Shown here piece after piece: positions 6,678 through 63,220 of a DNA stretch of 64,000 bases (the first letter of the stretch is position 1; each line of letters begins with the position of its first letter). Source of the DNA: Microbacterium sp. zg-B185 (GTDB lineage: Bacteria > Actinomycetota > Actinomycetes > Actinomycetales > Microbacteriaceae); the NCBI RefSeq assembly GCF_030246885.1, contig NZ_CP126739.1, forward strand, positions 1,240,001 to 1,304,000, given 5' to 3'. Position numbers and translations under genes: made by a program. Below the pieces are notes generated by a model. That model had not been told where the DNA came from. It ran no database searches and was given only the letters and a program-made list of their open reading frames with translations.

Positions 6678-6731
6678 GCTCCCCTGTCGCAAGCTGCGGG
6701 GTCCGTCGGCGAGTTGTGACAGGGGAGCGGG
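6678..6731 (+). repeat. Dispersed intergenic repeat, copy A
   Basis: Imperfect inverted arms, GCTCCCCTGTCGCA at the left and TGTGACAGGGGAGC at the right, flank a GC-rich core. The same right arm recurs at five other intergenic sites in the window. It lies between the rhodanese start and the qcrB terminator. Confidence 0.75.
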
Positions 6732-6782
6732 GGACTGGCTGGAAAGCGGGGGACTGGCGGGGGAGCGGGGACTGGCGGGGAA
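6727..6782 (+). repeat. Three 19-bp tandem repeats beside copy A
   Basis: Three head-to-tail units (6727-6745, 6746-6764, 6765-6782) share the word GCGGGGGACTGGC with small changes. The last unit is 18 bp. They start inside the right arm of the dispersed repeat. Confidence 0.8.
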
Positions 6783-6783
6783 C

Positions 6784-6831
6784 GCAGAAGGCCCCGGCGG
6801 ACACCGTGGGTGTCGTGCCGGGGCCTTCTGC
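6784..6831 (-). terminator. Long hairpin terminator of ctaE-qcrCAB
   Basis: A perfect 15-bp stem (GCAGAAGGCCCCGGC and its complement) encloses a second small stem, GACAC/GTGTC. It starts 14 nt beyond the qcrB stop. The run of T after the stem on the minus strand is short. Confidence 0.7.
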
Positions 6832-6844
6832 AGGTCGGGCCGGA

Positions 6845-8713
6845 TTAGGAGCCGGACTCCTTCTCGCGCTTGCGCGGCTTCTTCGTGCCGTCGTCGGAGA
6901 CGATCACGTTGGACGGGCGAACCGCGGTCTCCGAGCTGTGCCCGTCGTCGATGGGCACGTGCGGGGCGTCCGGAACTCCTGCGCGCTCGTGGGCGCCCTG
7001 CAGCTCCGCGTCCTCCTCGGTGGCGATGTGCTCCAGCTCGTGGTGCTGGTGAGCTGCCGCGGCGTCGAGCTCGGACTGCGTGAGCGGCGCGAGACGGTCC
7101 TCGAACAGTGTGCGCGACAGAACCGCACGCACGTTCTCGTACCAGGGGATACGTCCCTTGGCGTTGGGCCGAACGACGAGGGGCTCGTAGTTGTCGTTGT
7201 CGACGAGCTTCCAGCGCTCGTATTCGTCGACGGGCTGGTGCACCTCGATGTACTCGCCACCGGGAAGGCGGACGATGCGACCGGACTCGTAGCCGTGCAG
7301 TGCGATCTCGCGGTCCTTCTTCTGCAACGCGATGCAGATCCGCTTCGTGACGAAGTAGGCGATCACCGGTCCGAGGAACAGGAGGACCTGCAGGCCGTGG
7401 ATCACACCTTCCATCGTGAGGTAGAAGTGCGTGGCGATGATGTCCGAGGATGCCGCGGCCCACAGCACCGCGTAGAACGTGACTCCGGCAGCGCCGATGG
7501 CCGTGCGGGTTGCCGCGTTGCGGGGGCGCTGCGCGATGTGGTGCTCGCGCTTGTCACCCGTGATCCACGCCTCCAGGAAGGGGTAGAGCAGCACCGTGAC
7601 GATGAACACCCCGAGGATGACCAGCGGCACGAGGATGTTGAACGACCAGGTGCGGTCCAGGAAGACGAACTCCCACCCCGGCGGCACGAGTCGGAGCGCG
7701 CCGTCGGCGAAGCCGATGTACCAGTCAGGCTGGGTACCGGCCGAGACCGGCGACGGGTCGTAAGGGCCGTAGTTCCAGATCGGGTTGATCGTGAACATCG
7801 AGGCGATCAGGACGATCACGCCGAACGTGATGAACAGGAACCCGCCCATCTTGGACATGTAGACCGGCATCATCGGGTAACCCACGACGTTGCTGTTCTT
7901 GCGCCCCGGGCCGGCGAACTGCGTGTGCTTGTTGATCACCATCAGCATGAGGTGCAGCACGAGCAGTCCGACGAGGATCGCGGGCAGCAGCAGGATGTGC
8001 AGCGTGTACAGCCGACCGACGATCGCCACGCCGGGGAACTCGCCGCCGAACAGCAGGAACGATGTCCAGGTTCCGATCAGGGGGATCCCCTTGACCATGC
8101 CGTCGATGATGCGCAGGCCGTTTCCGGAGAGCAGGTCATCGGGAAGCGAGTAACCGGTGAATCCCTCGGCCAGCGCCAGGATGAACAGGATGAATCCGAT
8201 CACCCAGTTCAGCTCGCGAGGCTTGCGGAAAGCACCCGTGAAGAAGATGCGCAGCATGTGCACGCCGATGCCGGCGACGAAGACGAGCGCGGCCCAGTGG
8301 TGGATCTGCCGGACCAGCAGACCACCGCGGACATCGAACGAGATGTTCAGCGACGACTGCAGCGCCGCGGACATCTCGACGCCGCGCATCGGCAGGTATG
8401 CGCCGGTGTAGTGCGTGGGCACCATCGATGCCTGGAAGAAGAAGGTCAGGAACGTCCCGGACAGCAGGATGACCACGAAGCTCCACAGCGCGATCTCACC
8501 GAGCATGAACGACCAGTGGTCGGGGAAGATCTTGCGGCCGAGTTCCTTCACGAAGCCGGACAGGCTGGTGCGCTCGTCGATGTAGTTCGCGGTGGCCCCG
8601 ATGAAGCGACCGCCCAGGGGCTTGCCGTCCTTACCGGTGGGAACCGTGGTCAGGTTCTCCTTGACGGCCGGTTCCTGGGTGAGGTTCTCGGTGGGGTGAG
8701 TTGACGTACTCAA
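6845..8713 (-). CDS. qcrB: Cytochrome bcc complex cytochrome b subunit
   Basis: Cytochrome b carries the two haems b and the menaquinol sites of the actinobacterial bcc complex. The protein has 622 residues, with the long hydrophilic C-terminal tail typical of Actinobacteria (about the last 100 residues, rich in His, Glu and Lys). Haem ligands sit in QIHHWAALVF and HILLLPAILVGLLVLHL. The start is TTG at 8713, overlapping the qcrA stop as TTGA. No ATG or GTG precedes the conserved region, so the TTG is well supported. The last gene of the ctaE-qcrCAB operon. Confidence 0.95.
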   Translation of the reverse strand: MSTSTHPTENLTQEPAVKENLTTVPTGKDGKPLGGRFIGATANYIDERTSLSGFVKELGRKIFPDHWSFMLGEIALWSFVVILLSGTFLTFFFQASMVPTHYTGAYLPMRGVEMSAALQSSLNISFDVRGGLLVRQIHHWAALVFVAGIGVHMLRIFFTGAFRKPRELNWVIGFILFILALAEGFTGYSLPDDLLSGNGLRIIDGMVKGIPLIGTWTSFLLFGGEFPGVAIVGRLYTLHILLLPAILVGLLVLHLMLMVINKHTQFAGPGRKNSNVVGYPMMPVYMSKMGGFLFITFGVIVLIASMFTINPIWNYGPYDPSPVSAGTQPDWYIGFADGALRLVPPGWEFVFLDRTWSFNILVPLVILGVFIVTVLLYPFLEAWITGDKREHHIAQRPRNAATRTAIGAAGVTFYAVLWAAASSDIIATHFYLTMEGVIHGLQVLLFLGPVIAYFVTKRICIALQKKDREIALHGYESGRIVRLPGGEYIEVHQPVDEYERWKLVDNDNYEPLVVRPNAKGRIPWYENVRAVLSRTLFEDRLAPLTQSELDAAAAHQHHELEHIATEEDAELQGAHERAGVPDAPHVPIDDGHSSETAVRPSNVIVSDDGTKKPRKREKESGS

Positions 8714-9768
8714 TGGCGCTCCCAGAAGCTCGGCCCGACGGGTTCGGTGAAGTCGCTGCGGGCGACCAGATATCCCTCATCGTCGATGGTGATCGGCAGC
8801 TGCGGCAGGGGGCGCGCGGCGGGGCCGAAGATGACAGCGGCGCCGTTCGCCACGTCGAACTGCGACTGGTGGCAGGGGCACAGCAGGTGGTGGGTCTGCT
8901 GCTCGTACAGGGCGACGGGGCAACCCACGTGGGTGCACACCTTCGAGTACGCGACGATGCCGTCGTAGGACCAATCGGCGCGCTCGGGCGTCTCGACGAG
9001 GTCTTCAGGCAGCAGGCGCATGAGCAGCACGATGGCCTTGGCCTTCGCCTCGAGATAGCCGTCGTCGTGTCCCAGCTCGGCGAGGGCCTGGGGGATCACG
9101 TGCACCGCAGAGCCCAGGGTGACGTCGGCGGCACGGATGGGCGTTCCCTCGGGATCGTGGGCAAGGCGCATGCCTTCAGTCCACATGGTCTCTTCGAGGA
9201 GGGCAACGGGGTCTTCGCCCTCGGGAGCCAGTCCGCGGAAGAGCACGATGCCCGGGGCGACGGAGGCCACGACCGCGGCGATCAGCGAGTTGCGGATCAG
9301 GACGCGCCTGCCGAACCCGGACTCCTCGTTCGCGTCCGCGAAGACCTGGACTGCAGCGGCGCGGGTCGTGTCACGGCCGCGCGTGGCGTGACGAGGCTCG
9401 GTGAACTCCTTGTCCGACATGATCGCCTTGGACCAGTGGATCGCGCCGATGCCGAGCGCGAGCAGCGCAAGACCGATGCCCAGGCCGATGAAGAGGTTGT
9501 TGTTGCGGATGTCGACGATCCGCCCGCTCTCGATCGGGAAGAGCATGTAGGCGGCGATCGCCCAGATGCTCGCCGCGACCGACAGGTAGAACAGCGTGTA
9601 GACCGTGCGGACCGCACGCTTCATCGCCGCGGGGTCCTTGTCGGTCATCCTCTCGCGGTGAGGCGGGAGCACAGGGGGCTGCACCGGGTCGGAAACCGCG
9701 ACGGCGAGCCCGGGCGAGGGCTTCCAGGAAGCCCTTTCATGCTCGAGCGGGTCGTCCTCGTGTGCCAT
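8710..9768 (-). CDS. qcrA: Cytochrome bcc complex Rieske iron-sulfur subunit
   Basis: This subunit oxidises menaquinol and passes electrons to cytochrome cc. The protein has 352 residues. Three hydrophobic helices (about 56-78, 93-110 and 162-180) replace the single anchor of classic Rieske proteins, as in other Actinobacteria. The cluster ligands are intact: Cys278 and His280 in CTHVGC, Cys297 and His300 in CPCHQSQF. The ATG follows GAGGA by 6-7 nt. The stop overlaps the qcrB TTG. Confidence 0.95.
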   Translation of the reverse strand: MAHEDDPLEHERASWKPSPGLAVAVSDPVQPPVLPPHRERMTDKDPAAMKRAVRTVYTLFYLSVAASIWAIAAYMLFPIESGRIVDIRNNNLFIGLGIGLALLALGIGAIHWSKAIMSDKEFTEPRHATRGRDTTRAAAVQVFADANEESGFGRRVLIRNSLIAAVVASVAPGIVLFRGLAPEGEDPVALLEETMWTEGMRLAHDPEGTPIRAADVTLGSAVHVIPQALAELGHDDGYLEAKAKAIVLLMRLLPEDLVETPERADWSYDGIVAYSKVCTHVGCPVALYEQQTHHLLCPCHQSQFDVANGAAVIFGPAARPLPQLPITIDDEGYLVARSDFTEPVGPSFWERH

Positions 9769-9819
9769 GGTGATCCTCGTTCGTACGGTGTTCGTAGCTG
9801 TGGTCGAAATCGAAATCGA

Positions 9820-10620
9820 TCAGTTGGACTTCGCCGTGATCCACACGGTGATGGCGATCAGACCGCCGATGCCGAAGATCCAGATGAACAGGCCTTCGGA
9901 GACGGGTCCGAGGGAGCCGAGCGAGAATCCGCCGGGCGACTCGTTCTCCTGCATGAACAGGAGCGAGGAGATGATGTCGCGCTTGTCTTCGGGCGTCAGG
10001 TTCAAGTCGTTGAAGACCGGCATGTTCTGCGGTCCGGTGACCATGGCGGCATACATGTGCAGCGGGCTGGTTCCGCTCAGCGCGGGGGCGTACTTGCCCT
10101 CGGTGAGCGCGCCGCCGGCGGCGGCCACGTTGTGGCACATCGCGCAGTTGATGCGGAACAGCTCCGCACCGCGTGCGACGTCGCCCTCGCCGTCGAGCAC
10201 TTCCTCTGCCGGGTAGGTGGGGCCGGGCGCGGTGGTCTGCACGTAAGCGGCCATCGCGAGGATCTGCTCGTGCGTGAACTGCACAGGCTTCTGCGGCGCC
10301 TGGGGCGCCTGCGCCTGCAGCGGCATGCGCCCGGTGGCGACCTGGAATTCAACGGACAGTTCGCCCACCCCGTACAGGGAGGGGCCCGTGCTCGAGCCCT
10401 GCAGGTCAAGACCGTGGCAGGTTGCACAGTTCGCCTGGAAGAGCTTCTTCCCGTCTTCGACGGTCAGCGCCGAGGAGACGGCGGTGTCGGTGTTCGCTGC
10501 CATCGCTGCGGATGCACCGGCGTACACGCCGCCTGTGATCAGGAGGCCGATGCCGATGAGTGCCGCCGCCGCCCAGGGACTGCGACGGCCGTTCGAGCGG
10601 CGCTTGGTCTCACGTGCCAT
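9820..10620 (-). CDS. qcrC: Dihaem cytochrome c of the bcc complex
   Basis: This membrane-anchored dihaem cytochrome links the bcc complex directly to aa3 oxidase, replacing soluble cytochrome c. It has 266 residues. An N-terminal anchor or signal helix (about 16-36) precedes two c-type domains with CATCH (Cys65, Cys68, His69) and CAMCH (Cys159, Cys162, His163). A C-terminal helix (about 244-262) holds it in the membrane. It lies 17 nt after ctaE and 51 nt before qcrA. Confidence 0.95.
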   Translation of the reverse strand: MARETKRRSNGRRSPWAAAALIGIGLLITGGVYAGASAAMAANTDTAVSSALTVEDGKKLFQANCATCHGLDLQGSSTGPSLYGVGELSVEFQVATGRMPLQAQAPQAPQKPVQFTHEQILAMAAYVQTTAPGPTYPAEEVLDGEGDVARGAELFRINCAMCHNVAAAGGALTEGKYAPALSGTSPLHMYAAMVTGPQNMPVFNDLNLTPEDKRDIISSLLFMQENESPGGFSLGSLGPVSEGLFIWIFGIGGLIAITVWITAKSN

Positions 10621-10637
10621 TTCGGAAAAGCTCCGCT

Positions 10638-11270
10638 CTATTTCAGGAAGTAGATGACGAGGAAGAGGGCGATCCAGACGACGTCGACGAAGTGCCAGTA
10701 GTACGACACCACGATCGAGGTGGTCATCTCCTTGCGCCCGAAGTTCTTGACGGCGTACGCCCGGCCGATCACGAGGAGGAACGCGAGCAGACCGCCCGTC
10801 ACGTGCAGGGCGTGGAAACCGGTCGTGATGTAGAACGCGGATGCGTACGAGTCGGACGAGATCGGCATGCCCTCAGCGACGAGCTGGGCGTACTCCCACA
10901 CCTGACCGGAGACGAAGATCGCGCCGAGTGCGAAGGTCAACCAGAACCACTCCACCATGCCCCAGCCGAGCCATCCGCGCTTCTTGGTGGAGTACGGCTG
11001 GAAGCGCTCGGCGGCGAAGACGCCCATCTGGCAGGTGACCGAGGAGAGCACCAGGATGATGGTGTTCACGGTCGCGTAGGGGACGTTCAGCAGTGCGGTG
11101 CGATCGGCCCAGAGCTCAGGGGACGTGCTGCGCAGGGTGAAGTAGATCGCGAACAGACCCGCGAAGAACATCACCTCGCTGCCGAGCCACACGATGGTGC
11201 CAACAGCGACCGGGTCGGGACGCTTGACCGAGCGCATGGCCTGAGAGTAGGTCGCTGTCGTGGTTGTCAC
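10638..11270 (-). CDS. ctaE: Cytochrome c oxidase subunit III
   Basis: Subunit III of aa3 oxidase, 210 residues with five or more membrane helices and the family motifs [25 protein letters not shown] and [11 protein letters not shown]. The frame is open to 11336. I start at the GTG at 11270 (V-T-T-T-T) because CATAAT ends exactly 6 nt before it and the homologous N-terminus begins here. The GAAGGG just upstream is too close to act as a ribosome-binding site. It heads ctaE-qcrCAB and is divergent from trpD, an order known from Mycobacterium. Confidence 0.93.
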
Positions 11271-11276
11271 CCCTTC

Positions 11277-11282
11277 ATTATG
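11277..11282 (-). promoter_or_regulatory. -10 box of ctaE-qcrCAB
   Basis: CATAAT on the minus strand ends 6 nt before the ctaE GTG. The operon transcript is therefore probably leaderless. Confidence 0.55.
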
Positions 11283-11451
11283 GCCGATTCCGGCGCGGTA
11301 TTTTCCATCCGCGCGACCGAATCGGCCCTTCCTCACCTTGACGGCGCTCCGGAGAGGGCCGAGAGTCCGCCGGGAATGTCGCCAGAGGTCGCAGTGAATG
11401 TCGGGCGGCCGCAGAGGGACCGCGCGGCGATCGTCCGGCGTGTCGCGCGGC

Positions 11452-11457
11452 TAGGCT
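11452..11457 (+). promoter_or_regulatory. -10 box of leaderless trpD
   Basis: TAGGCT ends 8 nt before the ATG at 11466, and no Shine-Dalgarno is present. Confidence 0.5.
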
Positions 11458-11465
11458 CTTGGCTC

Positions 11466-12527
11466 ATGGCGGAGTTGTACACGTGGCCCGGAATCCTCAC
11501 CACCCTCCTCGACGGGAGCGACCTCAGCGTGGCCGAATCGACGTGGGCGATGCGGCAGATCATGTCCGGCTCGGCCACCCCGTCGCAGCTGTCCGGGTTC
11601 CTGGTCGCCCTGCGCGTCAAGGGCGAAACAGTGGACGAGATCGTCGGGTTCCGGGACGCGATCCTGGAAGCGGCACTGCCACTGCCGGTGGACGCGAACG
11701 TGCTCGATATCGTCGGCACCGGCGGAGACCGCTTCGGGACGGTGAACATCTCGACCATGGCTGCAGTCGTGGCCGCGGCATCCGGGATACCCGTGGTCAA
11801 GCACGGCAACCGGGCGGCCAGCTCAGCGTCGGGCTCGTCCGACGTGCTCGCCGCGCTGGGCCTGGACCTGGCCATCACGCCGGAGCAGGTCGCGGAGACG
11901 CTCTCGCGCGCGGGGATCACGTTCGCGTTCGCCTCCGCCTTCCACCCCGGGTTCCGCCACGCCGGTGCCACGCGCCTCGAACTGGGTGTGCCGACGGTGT
12001 TCAACTTCCTCGGGCCGTTGTGCAACCCGGCCCGCGCGGAGGCCAATGCGGTCGGCGTCGCCCAGCTCGACCGGGTGCCGCTGATCACCGGCGTGTTCCG
12101 CACGCGCGGCGCCACAGCGCTGGTCTTCCGCGGCGACGACGGGTTGGACGAGCTCACGACGACCGGCCACAGCAGAATGTGGGAGGTGAGCCGCGGCGAT
12201 ATCCATGAGCACGACCTGGACCCGCGGGACCTCGGCATTCCCCTCGCGGACATCAATGATCTGCTCGGCGGTGACCCGGCGCACAATGCGCAGGTCGTGC
12301 ACCGGGTGTTCGACGGCGAGCGTGGGCCGGTGCGGGACATCGTGCTGCTCAACGCCGCGGCAGGCATCGTCGCCTTCGAGCTGTTCCAGGACGCGGCGCA
12401 GGTGCAGCGGCCGATCCTGGAGCGTCTCGCCGCGGCCAAGGACGCCGCCGCCGAGGCCGTGGACAGCGGCGCGGCAGCGCGGAAGCTGCAGACCTGGGTC
12501 GATGCCACCCGCTCGTACGCGGGCTGA
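11466..12527 (+). CDS. trpD: Anthranilate phosphoribosyltransferase
   Basis: TrpD transfers phosphoribose from PRPP to anthranilate in tryptophan synthesis. It has 353 residues, the full family length. The PRPP-binding motif GTGGD is at 84-88 and KHGNRAASS at 112-120. The frame is open far upstream, but homology begins at MAELYTWP and a -10 box sits 8 nt before this ATG. No other trp gene is nearby, so it is a detached trpD as in other Actinobacteria. Confidence 0.95.
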   Translation: MAELYTWPGILTTLLDGSDLSVAESTWAMRQIMSGSATPSQLSGFLVALRVKGETVDEIVGFRDAILEAALPLPVDANVLDIVGTGGDRFGTVNISTMAAVVAAASGIPVVKHGNRAASSASGSSDVLAALGLDLAITPEQVAETLSRAGITFAFASAFHPGFRHAGATRLELGVPTVFNFLGPLCNPARAEANAVGVAQLDRVPLITGVFRTRGATALVFRGDDGLDELTTTGHSRMWEVSRGDIHEHDLDPRDLGIPLADINDLLGGDPAHNAQVVHRVFDGERGPVRDIVLLNAAAGIVAFELFQDAAQVQRPILERLAAAKDAAAEAVDSGAAARKLQTWVDATRSYAG

Positions 12528-12578
12528 CGCTCCGCCGCTCCGCCGGACATGGCCTTACGGTGCTGCCGCGCACGCGGC

Positions 12579-12584
12579 TAGCGT
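12579..12584 (+). promoter_or_regulatory. -10 box before the 12621 membrane-protein gene
   Basis: TAGCGT lies 36 nt before the ATG. A possible -35, TTACGG, is at 12555-12560 with an 18-bp spacer. An AGGAGG ribosome-binding site follows in the leader. Confidence 0.4.
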
Positions 12585-12620
12585 GAGGACACACGCACCA
12601 CCCAATCGCAGGAGGATGCC

Positions 12621-13127
12621 ATGACCGATGCCCCGACCACCGCCCCCGCCGACACGGCCGCCGCGGTCGAATCGCCCGCGCGCAAACTCGGGCTCGTCAA
12701 GGCCGCCGGGATCCTCGGAATCCTGGGCGGGATCGTGCTGATCGTGGTCGGCATCGTGATCTGGATCGCCGTCTCCACGCAGCTGCGGGCCGAGAACATC
12801 ACCATCCCCGACGACGCGATGGCGTTCCAGGGGCAGACCGTCGCAGGACCATTCACCGCCTACGTGCAGGCCGACATCATCCAGCACCATGCCCTGGATG
12901 CGTCCGGCGGCAAGACGTACGCCGAACTCGCGCAGGACGATCCGGTGCGCCAGACCATGATGACCGCGTCGTTCCTGCGCGCATCGCTGTTCACCTCTGT
13001 GGTCTCGTTCGGCGTGGCCGTCTTCGCGATCGGCGTCGGCATCCTGTCCATCCTGTTCGGGTGGGCCATCCACCGACTCGCCACGGCCCCGGTCGTGATC
13101 AAGCGGTCCCAGGGCATCGCGACCTGA
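12621..13127 (+). CDS. Two-helix membrane protein of unknown function
   Basis: I do not recognise an enzyme here. The 168-residue protein has an Ala/Thr-rich N-terminus, transmembrane helices at about 28-51 and 123-150, and between them an extracytoplasmic loop of about 70 residues containing TIPDDAMAFQGQ and VQADIIQHH. The tail is short and basic. The ATG follows AGGAGG by 4-5 nt. Proteins of this type sometimes carry the label LigA-like ring-opening dioxygenase, which nothing in the sequence supports. The PHP gene follows after 16 nt, suggesting co-transcription. Confidence 0.75.
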   Translation: MTDAPTTAPADTAAAVESPARKLGLVKAAGILGILGGIVLIVVGIVIWIAVSTQLRAENITIPDDAMAFQGQTVAGPFTAYVQADIIQHHALDASGGKTYAELAQDDPVRQTMMTASFLRASLFTSVVSFGVAVFAIGVGILSILFGWAIHRLATAPVVIKRSQGIAT

Positions 13128-13143
13128 ACGCGCCCGCTTCCCG

Positions 13144-14139: not shown

Positions 14140-14155
14140 CGCCGCGCTCGAGGGG

Positions 14156-14161: not shown

Positions 14162-14167
14162 CAAGCG

Positions 14168-19031: not shown

Positions 19032-19091
19032 TGGACCCCGCCGTTTGAGTCCGGACCCCGCCGTTCGAGGCTCGACCCCGCCGTGTGAGGC
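19032..19091 (+). repeat. Three 20-bp tandem repeats
   Basis: Three adjacent units (19032-19051, 19052-19071, 19072-19091) share GACCCCGCCGT and end in GAGKC or GAGGC. They abut copy B of the dispersed repeat, between the exonuclease and secreted-protein genes. Confidence 0.85.
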
Positions 19092-19145
19092 TCGCCTGTC
19101 ACGTTGTGCGCGGTGGGTCGGCGTGTTGTGACAGGGGAGCGGGGG
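19092..19145 (+). repeat. Dispersed intergenic repeat, copy B
   Basis: The arms CCTGTCAC (19095-19102) and GTGACAGG (19128-19135) are perfect inverted repeats. The right arm continues as GGAGCGGGGG, as in the other copies. Confidence 0.75.
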
Positions 19146-36362: not shown

Positions 36363-36425
36363 GTCCGCTCACCTGTCACAACACGTCGGCGCGGCCCGCA
36401 GATCGTGACGGGGGAGCGGCGAGGT
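36363..36425 (+). repeat. Dispersed repeat, copy C1 (63 bp)
   Basis: The unit begins GTCCGCTCACCTGTCACAAC and ends GTGACGGGGGAGCGGCGAGG. The left arm is unusually complete. It is followed directly by copy C2. Confidence 0.85.
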
Positions 36426-36488
36426 GTCCGTCCGCTCACCTGTCACAACACGCCGGCGCGGCCCGCAGATCGTGACGGGGGAGCGGCG
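36426..36488 (+). repeat. Dispersed repeat, copy C2 (63 bp)
   Basis: Identical to C1 except one T/C difference, so it is a recent tandem duplication between DUF3054 and the PadR gene. Confidence 0.85.
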
Positions 36489-41121: not shown

Positions 41122-41195
41122 TTGCGGGGACAGGATTTGAACCTGCGACCTCTGGGTTATGAGCCCAGCGAGCTACCGAACTGCTCCACCCCGCG
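41122..41195 (-). tRNA. Initiator tRNA-fMet (CAT)
   Basis: A 74-nt cloverleaf with anticodon CAT in a CTCATAA loop. Position 1 is C and position 72 is A, the unpaired end required of initiator tRNA, and the anticodon stem carries three consecutive G-C pairs (CTGGG/CCCAG). The T arm is GCAGGTTCAAATCCTGT. The CCA end is not encoded. Confidence 0.95.
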
Positions 41196-54665: not shown

Positions 54666-56321
54666 GTGACAGCCCCGCTGCCTCTGCCGCAAGACGCCCA
54701 TCCGAACCTCTCGGATGGCGAACCCGGTGGCGCGCGCGGCCAGGTCAGAAAGCTTCCGCCCAAACCCGACGTGCCCGCCGATGTCGCGGCGGCGCAGGCC
54801 CAACCCCGGCCCACCCCGAAACGACCATCGGGTAGGACCACGGCCAAGAAGGCACCGCGCAGGAAACCGACTCCCGCTCCGGGACCGCCGCCGCCGCTGC
54901 CGCAGGATCTGTTGCTGCCGCCGGATCTGCCGCTGCCGCCGGATCTGCCGCCGCCGCCGGATCTGCCGCTGCCGCCGGATCTGCCGCCGCCGCCGGATCT
55001 GCCGCCGCCGCCGGATTTCATCGTCCCGCCGCGTCCTCCGCTCCCGCCCCCGACCACACCGGATGAGGCTGAGCTCGAAGCGCCGGAGCGTGCCGGGGCG
55101 CCGGAGTCCGTTGCCGAGACGGCCGAGCCCGCGGAGGCGGTCGCCGAGCCAGCAGTCGCCGTGCCGCCCGAAACGACGCCCGAGCCCGTGGCTCAGACGG
55201 CCGAGCCTGCGGTGGCTGTGCCGCCCGAAACAACGACCGAGCCCGAGCCTGAGCCCGTGGCTGAGGCGATTGCGGCTGCGGTGGCTGCGCCGGCGGAGAC
55301 GACCGAGTCCCTGGCCGACACGACGACCGAGTCCCTGGCCGACACGACGACCGAGTCCCTGGCCGAGGCGACCGCCGATCCTGCGGTGGCTCCGCCGGCC
55401 GGACCCGGTGCGCCGGGTACGGATGAGCCGTCCGGGCTGCCTGCCGAGGTGCCGCCCGCGGATGCCGACGCGCCGATCGTCGTGGCCCTGGACCGGGCGT
55501 ACGTCCGCCCGCCGACCATCGCCGCGCCGGACGCGTCGGTGACGGCATCCGTCGATGCGGGCACCGCTGCGCTGGTGGTCAAGGGGATCACCAAGAGCTT
55601 CGGCGATACCCGTGCCGTGGACGGCATCGATCTGACCGTTCCCGCCGGAATCTTCTACGGACTGGTCGGACCGAACGGCGCCGGCAAGACCACCACGCTG
55701 TCGATGATCGCCGGACTGCTGCGCGCTGACCGCGGGAGCATCCTCGTGAACGGAATCGACGCGGCATCCGACCCGATCGGCGCGAAGCGGCAGATGGGGG
55801 TGCTGCCCGATCGGCTGCGCACGTTCGACCGTCTCACCGGGCGGCAGCTGCTGCGTTACTACGGGCTGCTGCGCGGACTGCCGTCAGCCGTCGTCGAGAG
55901 CAGAACCGCCGACCTGGCGCGTGCCTTCGACCTGTCCGGCGCCCTCGGTCGTGCCGTCTCGGACTATTCGGCGGGAATGGTCAAGAAGGTGATGCTCGCG
56001 GGCGCCCTGATCCACTCTCCGCGGGTCCTGGTCCTGGATGAGCCGTTCGAGTCGGTGGATCCGGTCTCCAGCGCGATCATCCTCGACATCCTCTCCGCTT
56101 ACGTCGCACACGGCGGAACGGTCATCCTCTCCAGCCATGGGATGGAGCTGGTCGAGCGAGTCTGCGGCCGACTGGCGGTCATCGTCGCCGGCCAGGTGCT
56201 GGCCGAGGGGACCGTGGACGAGGTGCGCGGCGAGCTCACGCTCGAACAGCGCTTCATCGAGCTCGCGGGCGGTCTGAGCGACGTGGAGGGCCTGGAGTGG
56301 CTGCACACGTTCTCCGACTGA
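54666..56321 (+). CDS. ABC transporter ATPase with long Pro-rich N-terminal extension
   Basis: A 551-residue protein. Only residues from about 300 form the ABC ATPase: Walker A GPNGAGKTTT at 335-344, signature region DYSAGMVKKVMLAG, Walker B VLVLDEPFESVDP and the H-loop SSHGME. The first 300 residues are disordered and carry six LPxPPD units and three ESLADTTT-type units, encoded by tandem DNA repeats. Neighbouring ABC ATPases of this class lack such a region. GTG start by its -10 box. The permease gene overlaps its 3' end by 25 nt. Confidence 0.88.
   Translation: MTAPLPLPQDAHPNLSDGEPGGARGQVRKLPPKPDVPADVAAAQAQPRPTPKRPSGRTTAKKAPRRKPTPAPGPPPPLPQDLLLPPDLPLPPDLPPPPDLPLPPDLPPPPDLPPPPDFIVPPRPPLPPPTTPDEAELEAPERAGAPESVAETAEPAEAVAEPAVAVPPETTPEPVAQTAEPAVAVPPETTTEPEPEPVAEAIAAAVAAPAETTESLADTTTESLADTTTESLAEATADPAVAPPAGPGAPGTDEPSGLPAEVPPADADAPIVVALDRAYVRPPTIAAPDASVTASVDAGTAALVVKGITKSFGDTRAVDGIDLTVPAGIFYGLVGPNGAGKTTTLSMIAGLLRADRGSILVNGIDAASDPIGAKRQMGVLPDRLRTFDRLTGRQLLRYYGLLRGLPSAVVESRTADLARAFDLSGALGRAVSDYSAGMVKKVMLAGALIHSPRVLVLDEPFESVDPVSSAIILDILSAYVAHGGTVILSSHGMELVERVCGRLAVIVAGQVLAEGTVDEVRGELTLEQRFIELAGGLSDVEGLEWLHTFSD
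54906..55013 (+). repeat. Six 18-bp in-frame tandem repeats
   Basis: Units begin GATCTG every 18 bp at 54906, 54924, 54942, 54960, 54978 and 54996 and encode DLPxPP. Because the unit is a multiple of three, copy number can change without frameshift. Confidence 0.9.
55305..55376 (+). repeat. Three 24-bp in-frame tandem repeats
   Basis: Units at 55305, 55329 and 55353 begin GAGTCCCTGGCCGA and encode ESLADTTT twice, then ESLAEATA. Confidence 0.9.
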
Positions 56322-57868
56322 GGATCGCTCTTCTGCTGGGTGCCCTGCGCGGCGACTCCGCGCTCGTGACCCGGGTGCTGCTGGGACTGCTGCTGCTGGC
56401 GATGTCCGCGGTGACCGTGTGCTGGGCGATTCTCACGCTGCGGGATGCGCGCACCGAGGAGCTGCTCGCCGTCACGGTACTCGGCGGGTCCGCCGTCACA
56501 CTCGGGTTCGCGCTGGCCCCCCTGATCGCCGGCGCGACGGATCCGCTGGATCCTCGCCGGTTCGTGGTCCTCGGCCTGCCCGCCGGCAGGCTGGCGGCTG
56601 TCCTCGGCATCGCCGGGTTGCTCAGCGTGCCCACGCTCGTCCTGGTGGCCGTGGCGGTGTGCGCGGCCGTCGTGTGGGCCGAGCGCGGCGTTCCCGGGTG
56701 GGCCGCGGGCCTCGGCGTCGTGCTGGGTGTTGCCACGTGCGTGCTGCTCGCGCGGGTGTGCATGGCGCTGACGGCCCTGTTCTCGCGCGGGCGGCGTTCA
56801 CGTGAACTGGCCGGAGTGTTTGCCCTCGTCGTCCTGGTGGTCGCCGTACCGGTGGCCGTGTTCCTGGGCTCGCTGGAGTGGCGCGGCCAGGTCCCGCCGC
56901 AGCTGGCGGAGGCCGTCTCGATCCTGGCGCTGACACCGCTGGGAGCGGCGTGGGCCCTGCCCGGGGCGCTCGCGCAGCAGCAGACCGGCGCGGCCGGCGC
57001 GATCGTGCTCATCGCTGCGGGCACCCTTCTCGCCCTCGGCTTGATCTGGTTCCTGCTTGTCAGACGACTGCTTTCCACCACGGACCGGCCGGTGAGTGTG
57101 CACGTGCGCGGCGGGCTGGGCTGGTTCGCCGTCGCTCCCCGAACCGCCGGTGGAGCGATCGCCGCACGGAGCCTGATCTATTGGCTGCGCGACCTCCGCT
57201 ACGTCGTGAACATCGCCGTCATCCCGGTCGCGGCGGTCCTGACCACGGTCCCGCTGCTGATCGCGGGTGTCCCTCCGCAGATCGTGGCGCTGGTACCGGT
57301 CCCCATCATCGCGCTGTTCCTCGGCTGGTTCCCGCACAATGACGTCGCCTACGACTCCACGGCGATCTGGATGCACATCGCGAGCGGCATCCGCGGAGTA
57401 TCCGATCGGGTGGGGCGGCTGGTCCCCGTGCTGCTGATCGGCATCCCCCTGCTGGCGATCGGCGTCCCGATCGCCGTCGCCCTGAACGGTCGCTGGGCTC
57501 TGCTGCCGGCGATGGCCGGCGTCTGTGCCGCTCTGTTCCTGACCGGCCTGGGACTGTCGAGCATCTCCTCGGTCGCCGCGCCGTACGCGGTCTCACGGCC
57601 CGGAGAGAGCCCGTTCCAGCAACCCCAGCGGGTGGGCGCGGGCGGCGCCATCGCGCAGGCGGTGGTCATGCTGGGCGGAGTCGTACTCAGCGCCCCGGCG
57701 CTGTGGTGGGCATGGCTGGCGCTGAACGGCGACCCGGAGGCGGCGACGCTCGCGTTGTGGGGCGGCCTGGCGATCGGAGCGGTCGTGCTGATCGTCGGCA
57801 TCGCGATCGGATCCGCTGTCTTCCGGCAGCGCGGCGGCCGGCTCATGGAGTTCGCGGAATCCGTGTGA
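56297..57868 (+). CDS. ABC transporter permease
   Basis: A 523-residue membrane protein with twelve or so hydrophobic helices and few loops, matching the large permeases paired with ABC-2-like export ATPases. Its GTG start overlaps the ATPase gene by 25 nt, so both subunits are made together. The exporter's substrate is unknown. No accessory protein gene is adjacent. Confidence 0.85.
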   Translation: MAAHVLRLRIALLLGALRGDSALVTRVLLGLLLLAMSAVTVCWAILTLRDARTEELLAVTVLGGSAVTLGFALAPLIAGATDPLDPRRFVVLGLPAGRLAAVLGIAGLLSVPTLVLVAVAVCAAVVWAERGVPGWAAGLGVVLGVATCVLLARVCMALTALFSRGRRSRELAGVFALVVLVVAVPVAVFLGSLEWRGQVPPQLAEAVSILALTPLGAAWALPGALAQQQTGAAGAIVLIAAGTLLALGLIWFLLVRRLLSTTDRPVSVHVRGGLGWFAVAPRTAGGAIAARSLIYWLRDLRYVVNIAVIPVAAVLTTVPLLIAGVPPQIVALVPVPIIALFLGWFPHNDVAYDSTAIWMHIASGIRGVSDRVGRLVPVLLIGIPLLAIGVPIAVALNGRWALLPAMAGVCAALFLTGLGLSSISSVAAPYAVSRPGESPFQQPQRVGAGGAIAQAVVMLGGVVLSAPALWWAWLALNGDPEAATLALWGGLAIGAVVLIVGIAIGSAVFRQRGGRLMEFAESV

Positions 57869-57927
57869 GAACACCCCCGCCGGGACGGCCGGCGCCTCGC
57901 CCGGCCCCTCGCGTTCTGTCAGCGCGA

Positions 57928-57933
57928 TACACT
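57928..57933 (+). promoter_or_regulatory. -10 box of DUF3039 gene
   Basis: TACACT ends 8 nt before the ATG at 57942. Confidence 0.45.
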
Positions 57934-57941
57934 GACTGACC

Positions 57942-58208
57942 ATGAGCACCCCCCTCGACACCCCGGATCAGGGTGGCACCGCGACCCTAGATCGAGAACT
58001 CGAAGAGCTCATCCGGGAAGAGAACCTGGAACCCGGCGATCACGAGCGCTTCTCGCATTATGTGAAGAAGGAGAAGATCCTCGAATCGGCGATCACGGGC
58101 AAGCCGGTCCGCGCGCTGTGCGGCAAGAAGTGGACGCCCGGACGCGATCCGGAGAAGTTCCCGGTGTGCCCGACGTGCAAGGAGATCTACGAGTCGCTCG
58201 TCGGCTGA
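57942..58208 (+). CDS. DUF3039 protein
   Basis: An 88-residue protein typical of Actinobacteria: RFSHYVKKEKILESAITGKP and then LCGKKWTPGRDPEKFPVCPT with CPTC, giving three or four cysteines that probably bind zinc. Function unknown. Convergent with pncB. Confidence 0.92.
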   Translation: MSTPLDTPDQGGTATLDRELEELIREENLEPGDHERFSHYVKKEKILESAITGKPVRALCGKKWTPGRDPEKFPVCPTCKEIYESLVG

Positions 58209-58238
58209 TCGCCGGTCCTGTTCCCCCCGCGGGGCAGC

Positions 58239-59579
58239 TCACGAGCCGGCGTCGACGAAGACGGTCGGGATCGCCGGATCCGACCGGCTCAGCGCGAGCC
58301 CCCGCACCGGAAGCTCGTGCCGTGCGCGGACGTGATGCGCACGCGCGGCTTCGACGCCGGGGTGGCCCTGGTACGCGGCATCCGGTTCCCCCTCCACCAT
58401 GAGCTGAACCTGCAGCGGCCGCGCTCCGGGGTGGTCGGCCGCCGTGTCGACCTGCTCGAACCCGTCCGAGACCGCCACGACCTCGGCGGTCGCGACACCG
58501 TCCTGCAGTGCGCGGAACGCCGCCTTGCGGCCGCCCATCGAGCTCTTGTCGGCCGAGGACTTCGCCACCGCGACCCACGACCCGTCGGATGCCTGCCGCG
58601 CGACGAGCTTGTAGACCATGCCGGCGGTCGGCGTGCCCGAGCCGGTGACCACGGAGGTGCCCACTCCGTACGAGTCGACGGGGGATGCCGCCAACGCGGC
58701 GATCGCGAATTCGTCCAGGTCGCTGGTGACGGTGATCTTCGTGGCTGTCGCCCCGAGCTGATCGAGATGCGCCCGGACCTGAGCGGCGACGGTGGGAAGG
58801 TCGCCCGAGTCGATCCGCACGCCGCCGAGGCCGGTGCCGGCGACCCGCACGGCGGCCGCCACGCCCTGCCGGATGTCGTAGGTGTCGATCAGCACGGTGG
58901 TGTCCACGCCGAGAGCCTCGATCTGAGAGCGGAACGCGTCCTCCTCGCTGTCGTGCAGGAGCGTCCAGGCATGTGCGGCGGTGCCCATCGTCGGGATGCC
59001 CCAGCGCCGGCCGGCCTCCAGGTTGCTGGTTGCGCCGAACCCGGTGATGTACGCGGCGCGAGCCGCGGCGATCGCGGATTCCTCGCCGGCGCGACGGGAG
59101 CCCATCTCCGACAGAGGACGCTCCCCGGCGGCGATGCTCATCCGCGCGGCGGCGGTCGCGATGGCAGAGTCGTGGTTCAGCACGCTGAGTGCGAGCGTCT
59201 CCAGCACGACCGCCTCGGCGAACGTGCCCTCGATGGTGAGGATCGGGGAGCCGGGGAAGTACAGCTCGCCTTCCCGGTAGCCCGTGATCGAACCGCGGAA
59301 GCGGAAGCCGGCGAGGAATTCGAGCGTCGCGGCATCCACCACCCGTTCGTCGCGGAGGAATCGCAGCTCGTCGTCGCCGAAGCGAAAATCCTGGATCAGT
59401 GAGAGCAGGCGACCGGTGCCGGCCACGACACCGAACCGCCGTCCCGCAGACAGGCGCCTGCCGAACAGCTCGAAGACGCAGCGTCGCTGCGCGGTGCCGT
59501 CGCGGAGTGCCGCGTCGAGCATCGTCAACTCGTACCGGTCGGTGTGCAGGGCAGTGCTCCGCGGGAAGGGCGCGCTCAT
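58239..59579 (-). CDS. pncB: Nicotinate phosphoribosyltransferase
   Basis: A 446-residue NAD-salvage enzyme that joins nicotinate to PRPP. Motifs: LHTDRYELTMLDAAL at the start, MGSRRAGEESAI, GATSNLEAGRRWGIP, MGTAAHAW and VRIDSGDLP. Length matches the family. ATG has TAGGCT 6 nt upstream. Divergent from murI with 115 bp between the starts. Confidence 0.95.
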   Translation of the reverse strand: MSAPFPRSTALHTDRYELTMLDAALRDGTAQRRCVFELFGRRLSAGRRFGVVAGTGRLLSLIQDFRFGDDELRFLRDERVVDAATLEFLAGFRFRGSITGYREGELYFPGSPILTIEGTFAEAVVLETLALSVLNHDSAIATAAARMSIAAGERPLSEMGSRRAGEESAIAAARAAYITGFGATSNLEAGRRWGIPTMGTAAHAWTLLHDSEEDAFRSQIEALGVDTTVLIDTYDIRQGVAAAVRVAGTGLGGVRIDSGDLPTVAAQVRAHLDQLGATATKITVTSDLDEFAIAALAASPVDSYGVGTSVVTGSGTPTAGMVYKLVARQASDGSWVAVAKSSADKSSMGGRKAAFRALQDGVATAEVVAVSDGFEQVDTAADHPGARPLQVQLMVEGEPDAAYQGHPGVEAARAHHVRARHELPVRGLALSRSDPAIPTVFVDAGS

Positions 59580-59585
59580 GCGCTC

Positions 59586-59591
59586 AGCCTA
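59586..59591 (-). promoter_or_regulatory. -10 box of leaderless pncB
   Basis: TAGGCT on the minus strand ends 6 nt before the ATG at 59579. Confidence 0.6.
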
Positions 59592-59680
59592 CTGAGACCG
59601 GAACCGGCGCATTCGCCGGTTCCGCGGCGTTCTGGGCGATCGCGACCGCGCGGACGAGGTCGCGCCGACTGCAGCGCGGG

Positions 59681-59686
59681 TAGGCT
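59681..59686 (+). promoter_or_regulatory. -10 box of leaderless murI
   Basis: TAGGCT ends 8 nt before the GTG at 59695. Confidence 0.5.
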
Positions 59687-59694
59687 GGGCTCTC

Positions 59695-60519
59695 GTGAAC
59701 GACGCGCCGATCGGCATCTTCGACTCCGGGGTCGGCGGACTCACCGTGGCGCGGGCGATCTCCGCCCAGCTGCCACGCGAGTCGCTGCTGTACATCGGAG
59801 ACACCGCCCGCTCGCCATACGGGCCGAAGCCGATCGCCGACGTGCGACGCTATTCGCTGGAGATCCTCGACACGCTGGTCGAACAGGGCGTGAAGATGCT
59901 CGTGATCGCCTGCAACACCGCGTCCGCAGCGATGCTCCGCGACGCGCGCGAGCGCTACGACGTACCGGTGGTCGAGGTCATCGGCCCCGCTGTCCGCACC
60001 GCGATGTCCACGACCCGCAACGGCCGCATCGGCGTCATCGGCACCGCCGGCACCATCAGTTCGGGCGCCTATCAGGACATGCTCGAAGTCAACGAGCGCC
60101 TCACCGTCTTCGCGGAGGCGTGCCCTCGCTTCGTGGAGTTCGTTGAGGCGGGCATCACCGACTCGCCCGAGGTGCTCGCGGTGGCTGAGGAGTACCTGGC
60201 GCCGCTGCGGCACGCCGGCGTCGACACGCTCGTCCTCGGGTGCACGCACTACCCCTTTCTGGAGGGCGCCATCAGCTACGTCATGGGACCGGACGTGTCC
60301 CTGGTCTCCAGCGACACTGAGACCGCGAAGGACGTCTACCGCCAGCTCGTGAGCCGGGACCTGCTCTCCGGTGCGAATGCCGCCTCCCGCCACGTGTACG
60401 AGGCCACCGGCGACTCCGCCGACGAATTCCTCAGTCTCGCCCACCGCCTGATGGGCCGCGAGATCAGCGAAGTGCAGCTGGTCCACACCGGTGCCATCGA
60501 CCTGCCCGCGGGGCGCTGA
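59695..60519 (+). CDS. murI: Glutamate racemase
   Basis: MurI makes D-glutamate for peptidoglycan. 274 residues. [17 protein letters not shown] and the two catalytic cysteines, Cys73 in IACNTAS and Cys183 in LGCTHYPF, are intact. The GTG start (MNDAPIG) is supported by the -10 box. rph and rdgB follow on the same strand after 91 nt, a common actinobacterial order. Confidence 0.96.
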
Positions 60520-60610
60520 GGCGCCTTGCCCCGATCCGTGTCCCGATCGTGCAGCCGACACGCCGTGTCAGCGGTGTGAGAGTGGGACACCAACAGAAGA
60601 AGAGAGACTC

Positions 60611-61354
60611 ATGACCGACATCATCCGCGCCGACGGCCGCAGCGTCGACCAGCTGCGCCCCATCACGATCGAGCGCGGCTGGAGCAGCCACGCCGAAGGT
60701 TCGGCGCTCATCTCGTTCGGCGAGACGAAGGTGCTGTGCACCGCGTCGTTCACCAACGGCGTGCCGCGCTGGCTCACCGGCAAGGGCAAGGGATGGGTCA
60801 CGGCCGAGTACGCGATGCTGCCCCGCGCCACGAACAGTCGCAACGACCGGGAGAGCGTGAAGGGCCGCATCGGCGGACGCACTCACGAGATCTCGCGGCT
60901 CATCGGCCGCGCTCTGCGCGCGGTGGTGGACACCAAGGCCCTCGGCGAGAACACCATCGTCATCGACTGCGACGTGCTGCAGGCCGACGGCGGAACCCGC
61001 ACGGCTGCGATCACCGGCGCCTATGTCGCCCTGGCCGACGCGATCGAGTGGGGCCGGGCGAAGAAGTTCATCGCCCAGAAGGCGACCCCGCTCGTCGACT
61101 CGGTCTCGGGGGTGTCCGTCGGGATCATCGATGGCGAGCCGATGCTGGACCTGGCCTACGTGGAGGACGTCCGCGCCGAGACCGACATGAACCTCGTGGT
61201 GACCGGCCGCGGGCTGTTCGTCGAGGTGCAGGGGACCGCCGAGGGTGCCCCGTTCGACAAGCGCGAACTCGACGCGCTCCTCGAGCTCGGCCTGGCCGGC
61301 TGCGCGGACCTCCGTGACCTGCAGGTCGCCGCGCTGGCAGCTGCCGCGGAGTAG
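60611..61354 (+). CDS. rph: Ribonuclease PH
   Basis: A phosphate-dependent 3' exoribonuclease that trims tRNA 3' ends. 247 residues; [57 protein letters not shown] region (Arg-rich phosphate site) and [17 protein letters not shown] are present. ATG follows AGAAGAGAG with good spacing. rdgB begins 11 nt after. Confidence 0.95.
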
Positions 61355-61365
61355 GGACCTCGGAC

Positions 61366-61983
61366 ATGGATGCCGCACGCAGGGCGATCGTGCTGGCCAC
61401 GCACAACGCGCACAAGGTCGAAGAGTTCCGTGCGATCGTCGCCGCGACCCGCCCGGACCTCGACGTGATCGGATACGACGGACCTGAGCCGGTCGAGGAC
61501 GGTGTGACCTTCGCCGAGAACGCGCTGATCAAAGCCCGCGCAGCCGCCGCTCACACCGGACTGCCGGCGGTGGCGGACGACTCCGGCATCTGCGTCGAGG
61601 TCCTGGGCGGGGCTCCGGGGGTCTTCTCGGCGTACTGGGCAGGGCATGCGAAGGATGCTGCGGCCAACGTGAGCCTGCTGCTGGACCAGCTCTCCGACAT
61701 CCGCGACCCGCATCGCACGGCCACCTTCGTCTCGACCATCGCACTCGTGATCCCGGGGGACGGCGGCGCCGCTGTGCACGTCGTCGAGGGACGGTGGCCC
61801 GGGCGGCTGGCAGAGTCGGCGTCCGGCGAGGGCGGCTTCGGGTACGACCCGATCTTCATTCCCGACGGGCAGCCCGAAGGGACCGAACGCACGGTCGCGG
61901 ATTGGAGCGCAGAGGAGAAGAACGCGGCATCCCATCGCGCACGCGCATTCCGCGAGCTCGCACCGCTGCTGTCGTCTCTCTGA
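61366..61983 (+). CDS. rdgB: XTP/dITP pyrophosphatase (RdgB/Ham1)
   Basis: This enzyme hydrolyses non-canonical purine NTPs such as dITP and XTP. 205 residues with LATHNAHKVEEF (nucleotide binding), TFAENALIKARAAA, VADDSGICVEVLGG and GFGYDPIFIPDG, the full family set. It is the end of the murI-rph-rdgB group. Confidence 0.96.
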   Translation: MDAARRAIVLATHNAHKVEEFRAIVAATRPDLDVIGYDGPEPVEDGVTFAENALIKARAAAAHTGLPAVADDSGICVEVLGGAPGVFSAYWAGHAKDAAANVSLLLDQLSDIRDPHRTATFVSTIALVIPGDGGAAVHVVEGRWPGRLAESASGEGGFGYDPIFIPDGQPEGTERTVADWSAEEKNAASHRARAFRELAPLLSSL

Positions 61984-62136
61984 CGAACCGGTCTAGCCCG
62001 GTCTGCACCCGCTCTGCGCCCGGTCACGGCGAGACCTGCGCAGGCACCGGGCCGGCCGCGGCGCCGTCCGTCGCTATCGAGAACCGGACTCATTCCCGAC
62101 TAGCCCGGAATCGCTCGGGTGACCGCCCGGCGGTCG

Positions 62137-62142
62137 TAGCCT
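62137..62142 (+). promoter_or_regulatory. -10 box of leaderless cation-efflux gene
   Basis: TAGCCT ends exactly 6 nt before the ATG at 62149. Confidence 0.6.
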
Positions 62143-62148
62143 GAGGGT

Positions 62149-63057
62149 ATGCACGACCACGCTCCCGGCATCCGCGGCACCGGCAACCGCCGGCTGCTGG
62201 GGATCTCACTGGCCATCACCGCCGTGGTGATGGTCGTGCAGATCGTCGGGGCGGCGCTGTCGGGATCGCTGGCGCTGCTGGCGGATGCGGCGCACATGTT
62301 CACGGATGCCGCGGCGCTGGTGATCGCGCTCATCGCGAGCATCGTGGCGGCGCGTCCGGCGACGGACCGCCGGACCTTCGGATTCCAGCGCGCCGAGGTG
62401 TTCGGGGCGCTCGCAAACGGGGTGATCCTCATCGTCCTGTCGGTGTGGGTGGCCGTCGAGGGCGTCCAGCGGCTGATGAACCCGAGCGACGTGGCGGTCG
62501 CCGGCGGGCTGATGCTCGTCGTGGCGATCGTCGGCCTGGTCGCGAACGCGGTGGCGATGTGGCTGCTCAGCGCCGCGCAGCGGACGAGCATCAACGTGCG
62601 CGGAGCCTATCTGGAGGTGATGGGCGATCTGATCGGATCCGCGGCGGTGATCGTCGCGGCCATCCTCATCGTCACGACCGGGTGGATCCAAGCCGATGCG
62701 ATCGCGTCGCTGTTCATCGCGGCGATGATCATCCCGCGCGCCGTGTCGCTCCTGCGTGAGGTGGTCTCGGTACTGAGCGAGTCCACTCCGAAGGGGATGC
62801 ACGTCACGGAGATCCGCGACCACATCCTCGCCACGCCCGGAGTGGTGGACTGCCACGACGTGCATGTGTGGCAGCTCACCAGGGGCGCGCCGGTGTTCAC
62901 GGCGCACGTCGTCGTGGACGACGAGGCGCTCGCGGACGGCCGCGCGGGCGCGATCCTGCAGCGACTGCAGTCGTGCTTGGACGAGCATTTCGACGTCGAG
63001 CACTCGACGTTCCAGCTGGAGCCCGCCGGCCACGTCGAGCACGACGCGCACGCCTGA
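62149..63057 (+). CDS. Cation diffusion facilitator (CzcD-type)
   Basis: A 302-residue metal/proton antiporter with six helices and a cytoplasmic C-terminal domain (about 210-300) rich in His. The first metal motif is LLADAAHMFTDAAAL (His49, Asp53). The second, AYLEVMGDLIGS, has Glu156 in place of the usual His, with Asp160 retained, so metal selectivity may differ from classic zinc exporters. ATG by its -10 box. The N-terminus starts MHDH. Confidence 0.9.
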   Translation: MHDHAPGIRGTGNRRLLGISLAITAVVMVVQIVGAALSGSLALLADAAHMFTDAAALVIALIASIVAARPATDRRTFGFQRAEVFGALANGVILIVLSVWVAVEGVQRLMNPSDVAVAGGLMLVVAIVGLVANAVAMWLLSAAQRTSINVRGAYLEVMGDLIGSAAVIVAAILIVTTGWIQADAIASLFIAAMIIPRAVSLLREVVSVLSESTPKGMHVTEIRDHILATPGVVDCHDVHVWQLTRGAPVFTAHVVVDDEALADGRAGAILQRLQSCLDEHFDVEHSTFQLEPAGHVEHDAHA

Positions 63058-63083
63058 CACCCCCGGCGTCCAGGGCCGGCCGC

Positions 63084-63146
63084 ACCGGCCTGTTCGCCTG
63101 TCGGGTTCGGCGGCGGCGCTCGGCGTGTTGTGACAGGGGAGCGGGG
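63084..63146 (+). repeat. Dispersed repeat, copy D1 (63 bp)
   Basis: It starts ACCGGCCTGTTCGCCTGTCG and ends GTTGTGACAGGGGAGCGGGG, and differs from D2 at four positions. Confidence 0.85.
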
Positions 63147-63157
63147 AGGGTTGGTGG

Positions 63158-63220
63158 ACCGGCCTATTCGCCTGTCGCGTTCTGCGGCGGCGCTCGGCGT
63201 GTTGTGACGGGGGAGCGGGG
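63158..63220 (+). repeat. Dispersed repeat, copy D2 (63 bp)
   Basis: Second copy, separated from D1 by 11 bp, in the gap between the convergent cation-efflux and ligase genes. Confidence 0.85.

What the first reader, a model, noticed from the sequence alone, without database searches (positions are those of the whole stretch)
6678..63220. Six-copy dispersed intergenic repeat with conserved inverted arms
Sequence shows six copies (6678-6731, 19092-19145, 36363-36425, 36426-36488, 63084-63146, 63158-63220). Each has a left arm like CCTGTCACAAC and a right arm GTGACRGGGGAGCGG around a variable GC-rich core. All are intergenic, and all have the right arm on the same strand whatever the direction of neighbouring genes. 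Two sites are paired 63-bp units. I do not recognise it as a known element. Inference: a REP- or MITE-like family, or a structured site tied to replication direction.
Basis: partly seen in the sequence, partly recalled or inferred. Interest (0 to 1): 0.75.

Follow-up and report, generated by a model that had tools for sequence, protein, structure and literature searches.

The report
Palindromic repeats partnered with a nuclease
The six repeats are copies of a 51-base palindrome that recurs about sixty times around this bacterial chromosome and also brackets a gene for a homing-type nuclease; related nuclease genes in related bacteria are often bracketed by their own matching palindromes, which points to an unrecognised nuclease-and-repeat partnership.

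Summary
The repeat is real: a 51-bp inverted repeat of half-site GCTCNCCTGTCRCRANNYGCSG around a 7-bp centre. The chromosome holds about 63 copies in 35 places, none inside a called gene. Exact-pattern relatives in a collection of 84,980 species were all Microbacterium. Arms show little hairpin covariation. No Y1/RAYT transposase was found in 14 carriers.

The key result lies outside the window. At 869.4-870.4 kb a 318-aa gene is flanked on both sides by copies. Its protein models as an AbiEi-like domain fused to a Vsr/EDxHD homing-endonuclease domain. Relatives occur in 76 of 79 Microbacterium genomes and 95 of 198 genomes of the order. Of 58 such genes, 42 have a matched inverted repeat on both sides; 0 of 244 ordinary Microbacterium genes do. 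Repeat similarity follows protein similarity (Mantel r 0.41, 0 of 2000 permutations).

Best reading: a REP/REPtron-like partnership whose enzyme is an EDxHD nuclease instead of a HUH transposase. The physical coupling is shown; binding, cleavage and mobilisation are inferred. Ten paper searches showed no report of it.

The parts
6678..6728 (-). 51-bp dyad, copy 1 (strand = direction of the better-conserved A half); single copy between two minus-strand genes
19090..19140 (-). 51-bp dyad, copy 2; single copy between two minus-strand genes
36367..36417 (+). 51-bp dyad, copy 3; first of a tandem pair (period 67) between two plus-strand genes
36434..36484 (+). 51-bp dyad, copy 4; second of the pair
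63092..63142 (-). 51-bp dyad, copy 5; first of a tandem pair (period 74) between convergent genes
63166..63216 (-). 51-bp dyad, copy 6; second of the pair. The partner nuclease gene is outside the window, at genome 869,412-870,368 (minus strand; the window begins at genome 1,240,001)

Best explanation
The six copies belong to a family of about 63 dispersed 51-bp dyads, the non-coding half of a two-part system. The other half is a nuclease gene about 370 kb from the window (genome 869,412-870,368, minus strand, 318 aa) that is bracketed by six copies of the same dyad (869,196-869,399 and 870,478-870,751). SHOWN by sequence: genes of this nuclease family are often bracketed by matched inverted repeats, different subfamilies by different repeats, and repeat and protein diverge together. 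INFERRED: the AbiEi-like part (residues 2-210) reads the half-site, a dimer sits across the dyad, and the Vsr/EDxHD domain (213-318) cuts DNA there. INFERRED: cutting and repair copy the dyad into other intergenic places and expand it into tandem arrays, so the dyad is a non-autonomous REP-like element and the nuclease plays the part that RAYT plays in REPtrons. The lack of divergent (promoter) positions would reflect where insertions are tolerated.
Against: No binding, cleavage or movement is shown. 16 of 58 family genes have no matched pair by this test (G017, flanked by known copies, is one of them, so some are misses of the test; others may be real). Controls are Microbacterium genes only; none were run for the genomes outside the genus. 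Arm similarity among close proteins can also be shared ancestry of the locus. G052, G056, G062 and G065 carry a few P1-type elements while their best homologue is only 46-54% identical; the flank words of the G052, G056, G062 and G065 genes are of other types, so dyads can exist without an obvious cognate gene. Relatives are too distant to read exact insertion ends; no target duplication was found at 19 single-copy loci (49 tests). Foldseek gave no match with E<=0.001. The own protein is just below the Pfam cut-offs.
Confidence: 0.6

Rival explanations
1. Regulatory or sink sites: the AbiEi-like domain represses its own gene by binding flanking dyads, and dispersed dyads titrate the nuclease or hold it harmless. 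The system would be a defence or addiction nuclease with host-encoded binding sites rather than a mobile element.
For: AbiEi-like fold over residues 2-210 and PADLOC AbiEi models in up to 17 of 54 members; that AbiEi antitoxins autoregulate at inverted repeats is recalled, not from a call. Repeat and protein diverge together.
Against: Dyads flank both ends of the gene, not only its start. Dispersed copies avoid divergent, promoter-bearing gaps (1 of 36). Presence is patchy.
Confidence: 0.2
2. Cassette scars: the dyads are the two ends of a mobile nuclease cassette, and dispersed dyads are left behind when the cassette is lost by recombination between its ends, like solo LTRs.
For: The dyad-gene-dyad arrangement. 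The own P1 gene sits in another neighbourhood than the lipoprotein-Xre place used in 13 other loci.
Against: About 63 copies against one cognate gene in this genome. Same-place inheritance with changed dyads in 13 loci suggests a gene that rarely moves. Arrays with recurrent 73-74 bp spacing are not explained.
Confidence: 0.1
3. Bidirectional terminator or host chromosome-organising site, with no part in mobility; the link with the nuclease would be secondary.
For: Excess between convergent genes (15 of 36 against 28 of 165 pairs, p 0.003). In strain CD11_3 the dyad follows the stop codon of a convergent gene where G056 has unrelated sequence. A 1.06-Mb gap around the terminus if the diverged 1,749-kb array is left out (p 0.0004), but p 0.049 with it, and the terminus-half test is not significant (14 of 35).
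Against: No run of T after the arms in the six window copies (by eye). Little covariation of the arms. 71 of 79 genomes have no match at E<=1e-5. Does not explain matched dyads around the nuclease genes.
Confidence: 0.1

Closest known systems
REP / REPIN sequences with RAYT (TnpAREP) transposases, 'REPtrons' (PMC3116915 and PMC3733652: passages; PMC8266576: abstract and section list)
   Same: Short palindromes in many copies between genes; inverted doublets of a half-site at fixed distance; arrays; the partner gene is flanked by the repeats; enzyme and repeat coevolve
   Different: The partner is an AbiEi-EDxHD nuclease, not a HUH tyrosine transposase; arms do not behave as a hairpin; no GTAG/CGTC tag; no Y1_Tnp gene in 14 carriers
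EDxHD homing endonucleases (I-Bth0305I) and Vsr (PMC3943268: passages)
   Same: Catalytic fold and E, D, H, D residues; the I-Bth0305I target is long, nearly 60 bp, and bound by a dimer
   Different: A free-standing chromosomal gene with an AbiEi-like recognition part and dispersed cognate repeats; no intron seen around it
Vsr-like DUF559 nuclease VsrA of Caulobacter (PMC12907096: start of abstract and passages)
   Same: A DUF559/Vsr-type nuclease on a bacterial chromosome, reported there as the cause of an SOS response
   Different: That paper ties it to cytosine methylation; in the passages seen, no flanking or dispersed palindromes
AbiEi antitoxin (6y8q)
   Different: Here fused to a nuclease; an AbiEii partner gene was not looked for
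REase_MTES_1575 / DUF559 Pfam families (name from a Microbacterium testaceum multidomain protein; PMC3710099: passages)
   Same: C-terminal domain; 49 and 44 of 54 members match at E<=0.01
   Different: In PMC3710099 the domain is part of a large HEPN protein; no link with repeats in the passages seen

Membership tests
REP/REPIN-RAYT (REPtron) | Short palindromic repeat, many copies, between genes | tested here: met
   63 elements, 0 inside called genes
REP/REPIN-RAYT (REPtron) | Inverted doublet of the half-site at a fixed distance | tested here: met
   Gap 21 in 134 of 134 other-species copies (seed copies by construction; 18-24 allowed for the rest); 55 of 63 own elements have the same length
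REP/REPIN-RAYT (REPtron) | Y1 (HUH) transposase gene in the carrier genome | tested here: not met
   0 of 14 carriers; 5 of 14 control genomes ring
REP/REPIN-RAYT (REPtron) | GTAG or CGTC tag at one end | tested here: not met
   Consensus ends are GCTC..GAGC, read by eye; tag from PMC3733652 passages
REP/REPIN-RAYT (REPtron) | Arms act as a single-strand hairpin | tested here: inconclusive
   No compensatory pair; columns 12, 14, 16-18 at or below shuffled pairing, 5, 20 and 23 above
MITE of an insertion sequence | Target-site duplication | tested here: inconclusive
   No excess of flanking direct repeats at 19 single-copy loci, 49 tests; copies may be old
MITE of an insertion sequence | Full-length element with the same ends around a transposase | tested here: inconclusive
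EDxHD/Vsr nucleases | Fold of the catalytic domain | tested here: met
EDxHD/Vsr nucleases | Conserved E, D, H, D residues | tested here: met
   E218, H267, D277 54 of 54; D250 51 of 54; assignment to the motif is by order in sequence, not by superposed active sites
EDxHD/Vsr nucleases | DNA cleavage / homing | not testable with these tools
   needs protein
AbiE toxin-antitoxin | AbiEi fold | tested here: met
AbiE toxin-antitoxin | Adjacent AbiEii nucleotidyltransferase toxin | not tested
   neighbours were listed only for the own paralogs and not searched for it
Intrinsic terminator | Hairpin followed by a T run | tested here: not met
   No T run in the 20 bases after the six copies (by eye)

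The most novel reading that the evidence does not exclude
Across this bacterial order there is an unrecognised class of selfish element: an AbiEi-EDxHD homing-type nuclease that propagates its own palindromic recognition site through the host chromosome ('nuclease REPs'), nuclease and site diversifying together, so that one genome can carry several independent nuclease-repeat pairs (four in this one).
Probability: 0.45. Interest if true: 0.92.

Novelty: new variant of a known kind. Interest (0 to 1): 0.8.

Why it matters
Dispersed bacterial palindromes have one well-described partner enzyme, the HUH transposase RAYT, and one large palindrome class is said to lack a dedicated transposase (PMC3733652, abstract passages). 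A second, unrelated partner in an order of Actinobacteria would explain orphan palindromes, give a role to a DUF559/MTES_1575 family, and supply natural pairs of protein and 51-61 bp site whose specificity could be read from sequence. It makes the spread of such repeats directly testable at the bench.

Full report
THE OBSERVATION. The six copies are at the stated places. The unit is a 51-bp dyad of two half-sites, GCTCNCCTGTCRCRANNYGCSG, inverted around a 7-bp centre (profile of 107 copies, one per locus; the other-species copies were fetched by a pattern that fixes much of the arm, so arm conservation there is partly by construction). Nearly all own copies have one better-conserved half (A, CTGTCACRACACGCCG) and one looser half (B). 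In the window A points to + in two copies and to - in four. A covariance model from 30 own copies gives 125 match rows in the 3,568,984-bp chromosome at E<=1. Merging strands and leaving out two weak rows (3,375,806 and 1,437,564, E about 0.25) leaves 63 elements; the weakest kept is 182,129 (E 0.017). They lie in 35 loci, 16 of them multi-copy. By my own gene caller 0 of 63 lie inside genes. Of 36 intergenic regions 15 are convergent, 20 tandem, 1 divergent, against 28, 111 and 26 among all adjacent pairs in 20 stretches chosen without regard to elements: convergent excess p 0.003, divergent deficit p 0.055.

DISTRIBUTION. The exact arms with a 21-base gap occur in 72 stretches in the collection of 84,980 species genomes; every listed title is Microbacterium, 15 assemblies by my count (records near the own genome may be left out). 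In 79 genomes of the genus, 8 have model matches at E<=1e-5: 71 match rows in the own genome, 59 in G017, 14 in G028, then 7, 7, 2, 2 and 1 (rows count both strands, stricter filters). Loci without the dyad exist. G019 lacks one that G028 carries just upstream of a gene start, and G011, G015, G013 and G022 lack another of G028. G056 (taken to be M. oleivorans NBRC 103075 because it shares copies with it) has unrelated sequence in a convergent gap that holds a dyad in strain CD11_3. Protein-coding DNA of the relatives aligned is about 70-86% identical, so exact insertion ends could not be read. No flanking duplication was found at 19 single-copy loci.

NOT CLEARLY A HAIRPIN. RNAalifold finds no compensatory pair in 30 own copies. 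In 107 copies the variable columns 12, 14, 16, 17 and 18 pair at or below shuffled expectation; 5, 20 and 23 lie above it. The gap between arms is 21 in 134 of 134 other-species copies. Neighbouring copies in other species recur at 73-74 bp in 37 of 57 pairs, with linkers that look unrelated from locus to locus. Own spacings are more varied. Helical phasing is not established.

STRAND BIAS. dnaA, dnaN, gyrB and gyrA open the contig, so I take the origin at 0; sampled GC skew is weak. In 55 elements position 5 is G in 47 of 55 arms read on the leading strand, and C in 36 of 55 arms read on the lagging strand. Per locus Fisher p is 8e-7, and 53 of 66 against the 53% of flanks gives p 6e-6. The A/B core is random to replication (29 against 26).

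GENERALITY. Relatives at E<=1e-10 occur in 76 of 79 Microbacterium genomes, one to eight per genome, and at E<=1e-15 in 95 of 198 genomes of the order. The five closest outside the own genome (G017, G028, G050, G051, G054) have arms of this family with up to 3 mismatches on both sides. Of more distant ones, most share some other repeat between their flanks. Tests: the best word shared by the 450-nt flanks scores >=15 in 19 of 27 loci against 1.4% of 146 ordinary genes, and >=17 in 15 of 27 against none. A matched dyad pair of equal length and similar arms is found in 42 of 58 family genes (24 of 35 in the genus with all four own paralogs, 18 of 23 outside) against 0 of 143 own control genes and 0 of 101 control genes from other Microbacterium loci. 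Own paralogs P2 (907,952), P3 (972,755) and P4 (2,636,736) have dyads of 61, 53 and 53 bp. P2 and P4 arms also occur away from their genes in the 692 kb examined; P3 arms were seen only at the gene.

COEVOLUTION. Across 39 loci arm similarity follows protein identity (Mantel r 0.41, 0 of 2000 permutations). Arms score >=12 in 1-4% of pairs under 50% identity, 21% at 50-55, 50% at 55-60 and 67% at 60-70 (9 pairs), with 1.5% for shuffled arms. Shared ancestry of the whole locus can add to this. Regression weights are largest for residues 61-135 and 1-60 and smallest for the nuclease domain, a hint, not tested for significance, that the AbiEi-like part reads the site. In 13 loci the same lipoprotein and Xre neighbour genes are both present, yet their dyads fall into several unrelated families: same place, changed site. 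The own P1 gene sits elsewhere.

MECHANISM. Shown: a nuclease family and matched repeats are physically coupled and diverge together, and in this genome one such repeat is dispersed in about 63 copies. Inferred: dimer binding to the dyad (a review describes I-Bth0305I as a dimer on nearly 60 bp; PMC3943268, passages), cleavage, and copying of the dyad by repair. Alternatives: operators or sinks of a defence nuclease, cassette scars, terminators or chromosome sites.

COMPARISON. It works like a REPtron but fails two features tested for REP/RAYT (Y1 transposase gene, end tag) and the hairpin test is inconclusive. I therefore do not file it as REP/RAYT but as a REP-like variant with a different enzyme class. 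The nuclease meets the fold and residue tests of the EDxHD/Vsr group; activity is untested. Ten paper searches (listed under Tried and rejected) showed no report of the link in an open-licence library; listings and passages were seen, no whole paper.

Noticed in passing
L312 (genome 905000-912000), L313 (970000-977000), L314 (2634000-2641000): Three further paralogs of the nuclease in the own genome (50, 40 and 36% identical), each bracketed by its own dyad family; P2 and P4 arms also occur elsewhere in the held stretches.
   Followed up: partly
L020 162-390 (genome about 869,180-869,400): Next to the nuclease gene the half-site also recurs in direct orientation about every 24 bp, besides the dyads.
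   Followed up: no
L092, genome 1,749,338-1,749,673: The only array near the terminus is a diverged four-copy array with 94-bp period and a different inner core.
   Followed up: no
L308 (G005) and L311 (G075), flanks of the nuclease gene: Other nuclease homologues are flanked by long near-perfect palindromes of about 55-57 bp, unlike the loose dyads of the own genome.
   Followed up: no
L333 (G082), L335 (G175), L340 (G262): Outside Microbacterium some flanking dyads are nearly perfect palindromes, so hairpin formation may matter there.
   Followed up: no
L099, linker between the elements at genome 2,814,239 and 2,814,537: Another inverted repeat (GCATAACTCC..GGAGTTATGC) lies between two copies of the element.
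   Followed up: no
window 54875-55054: 18-bp tandem repeats at the start of a called gene (54912-56321).
   Followed up: no
window 41122-41195: A tRNA gene on the minus strand (Rfam).
   Followed up: no
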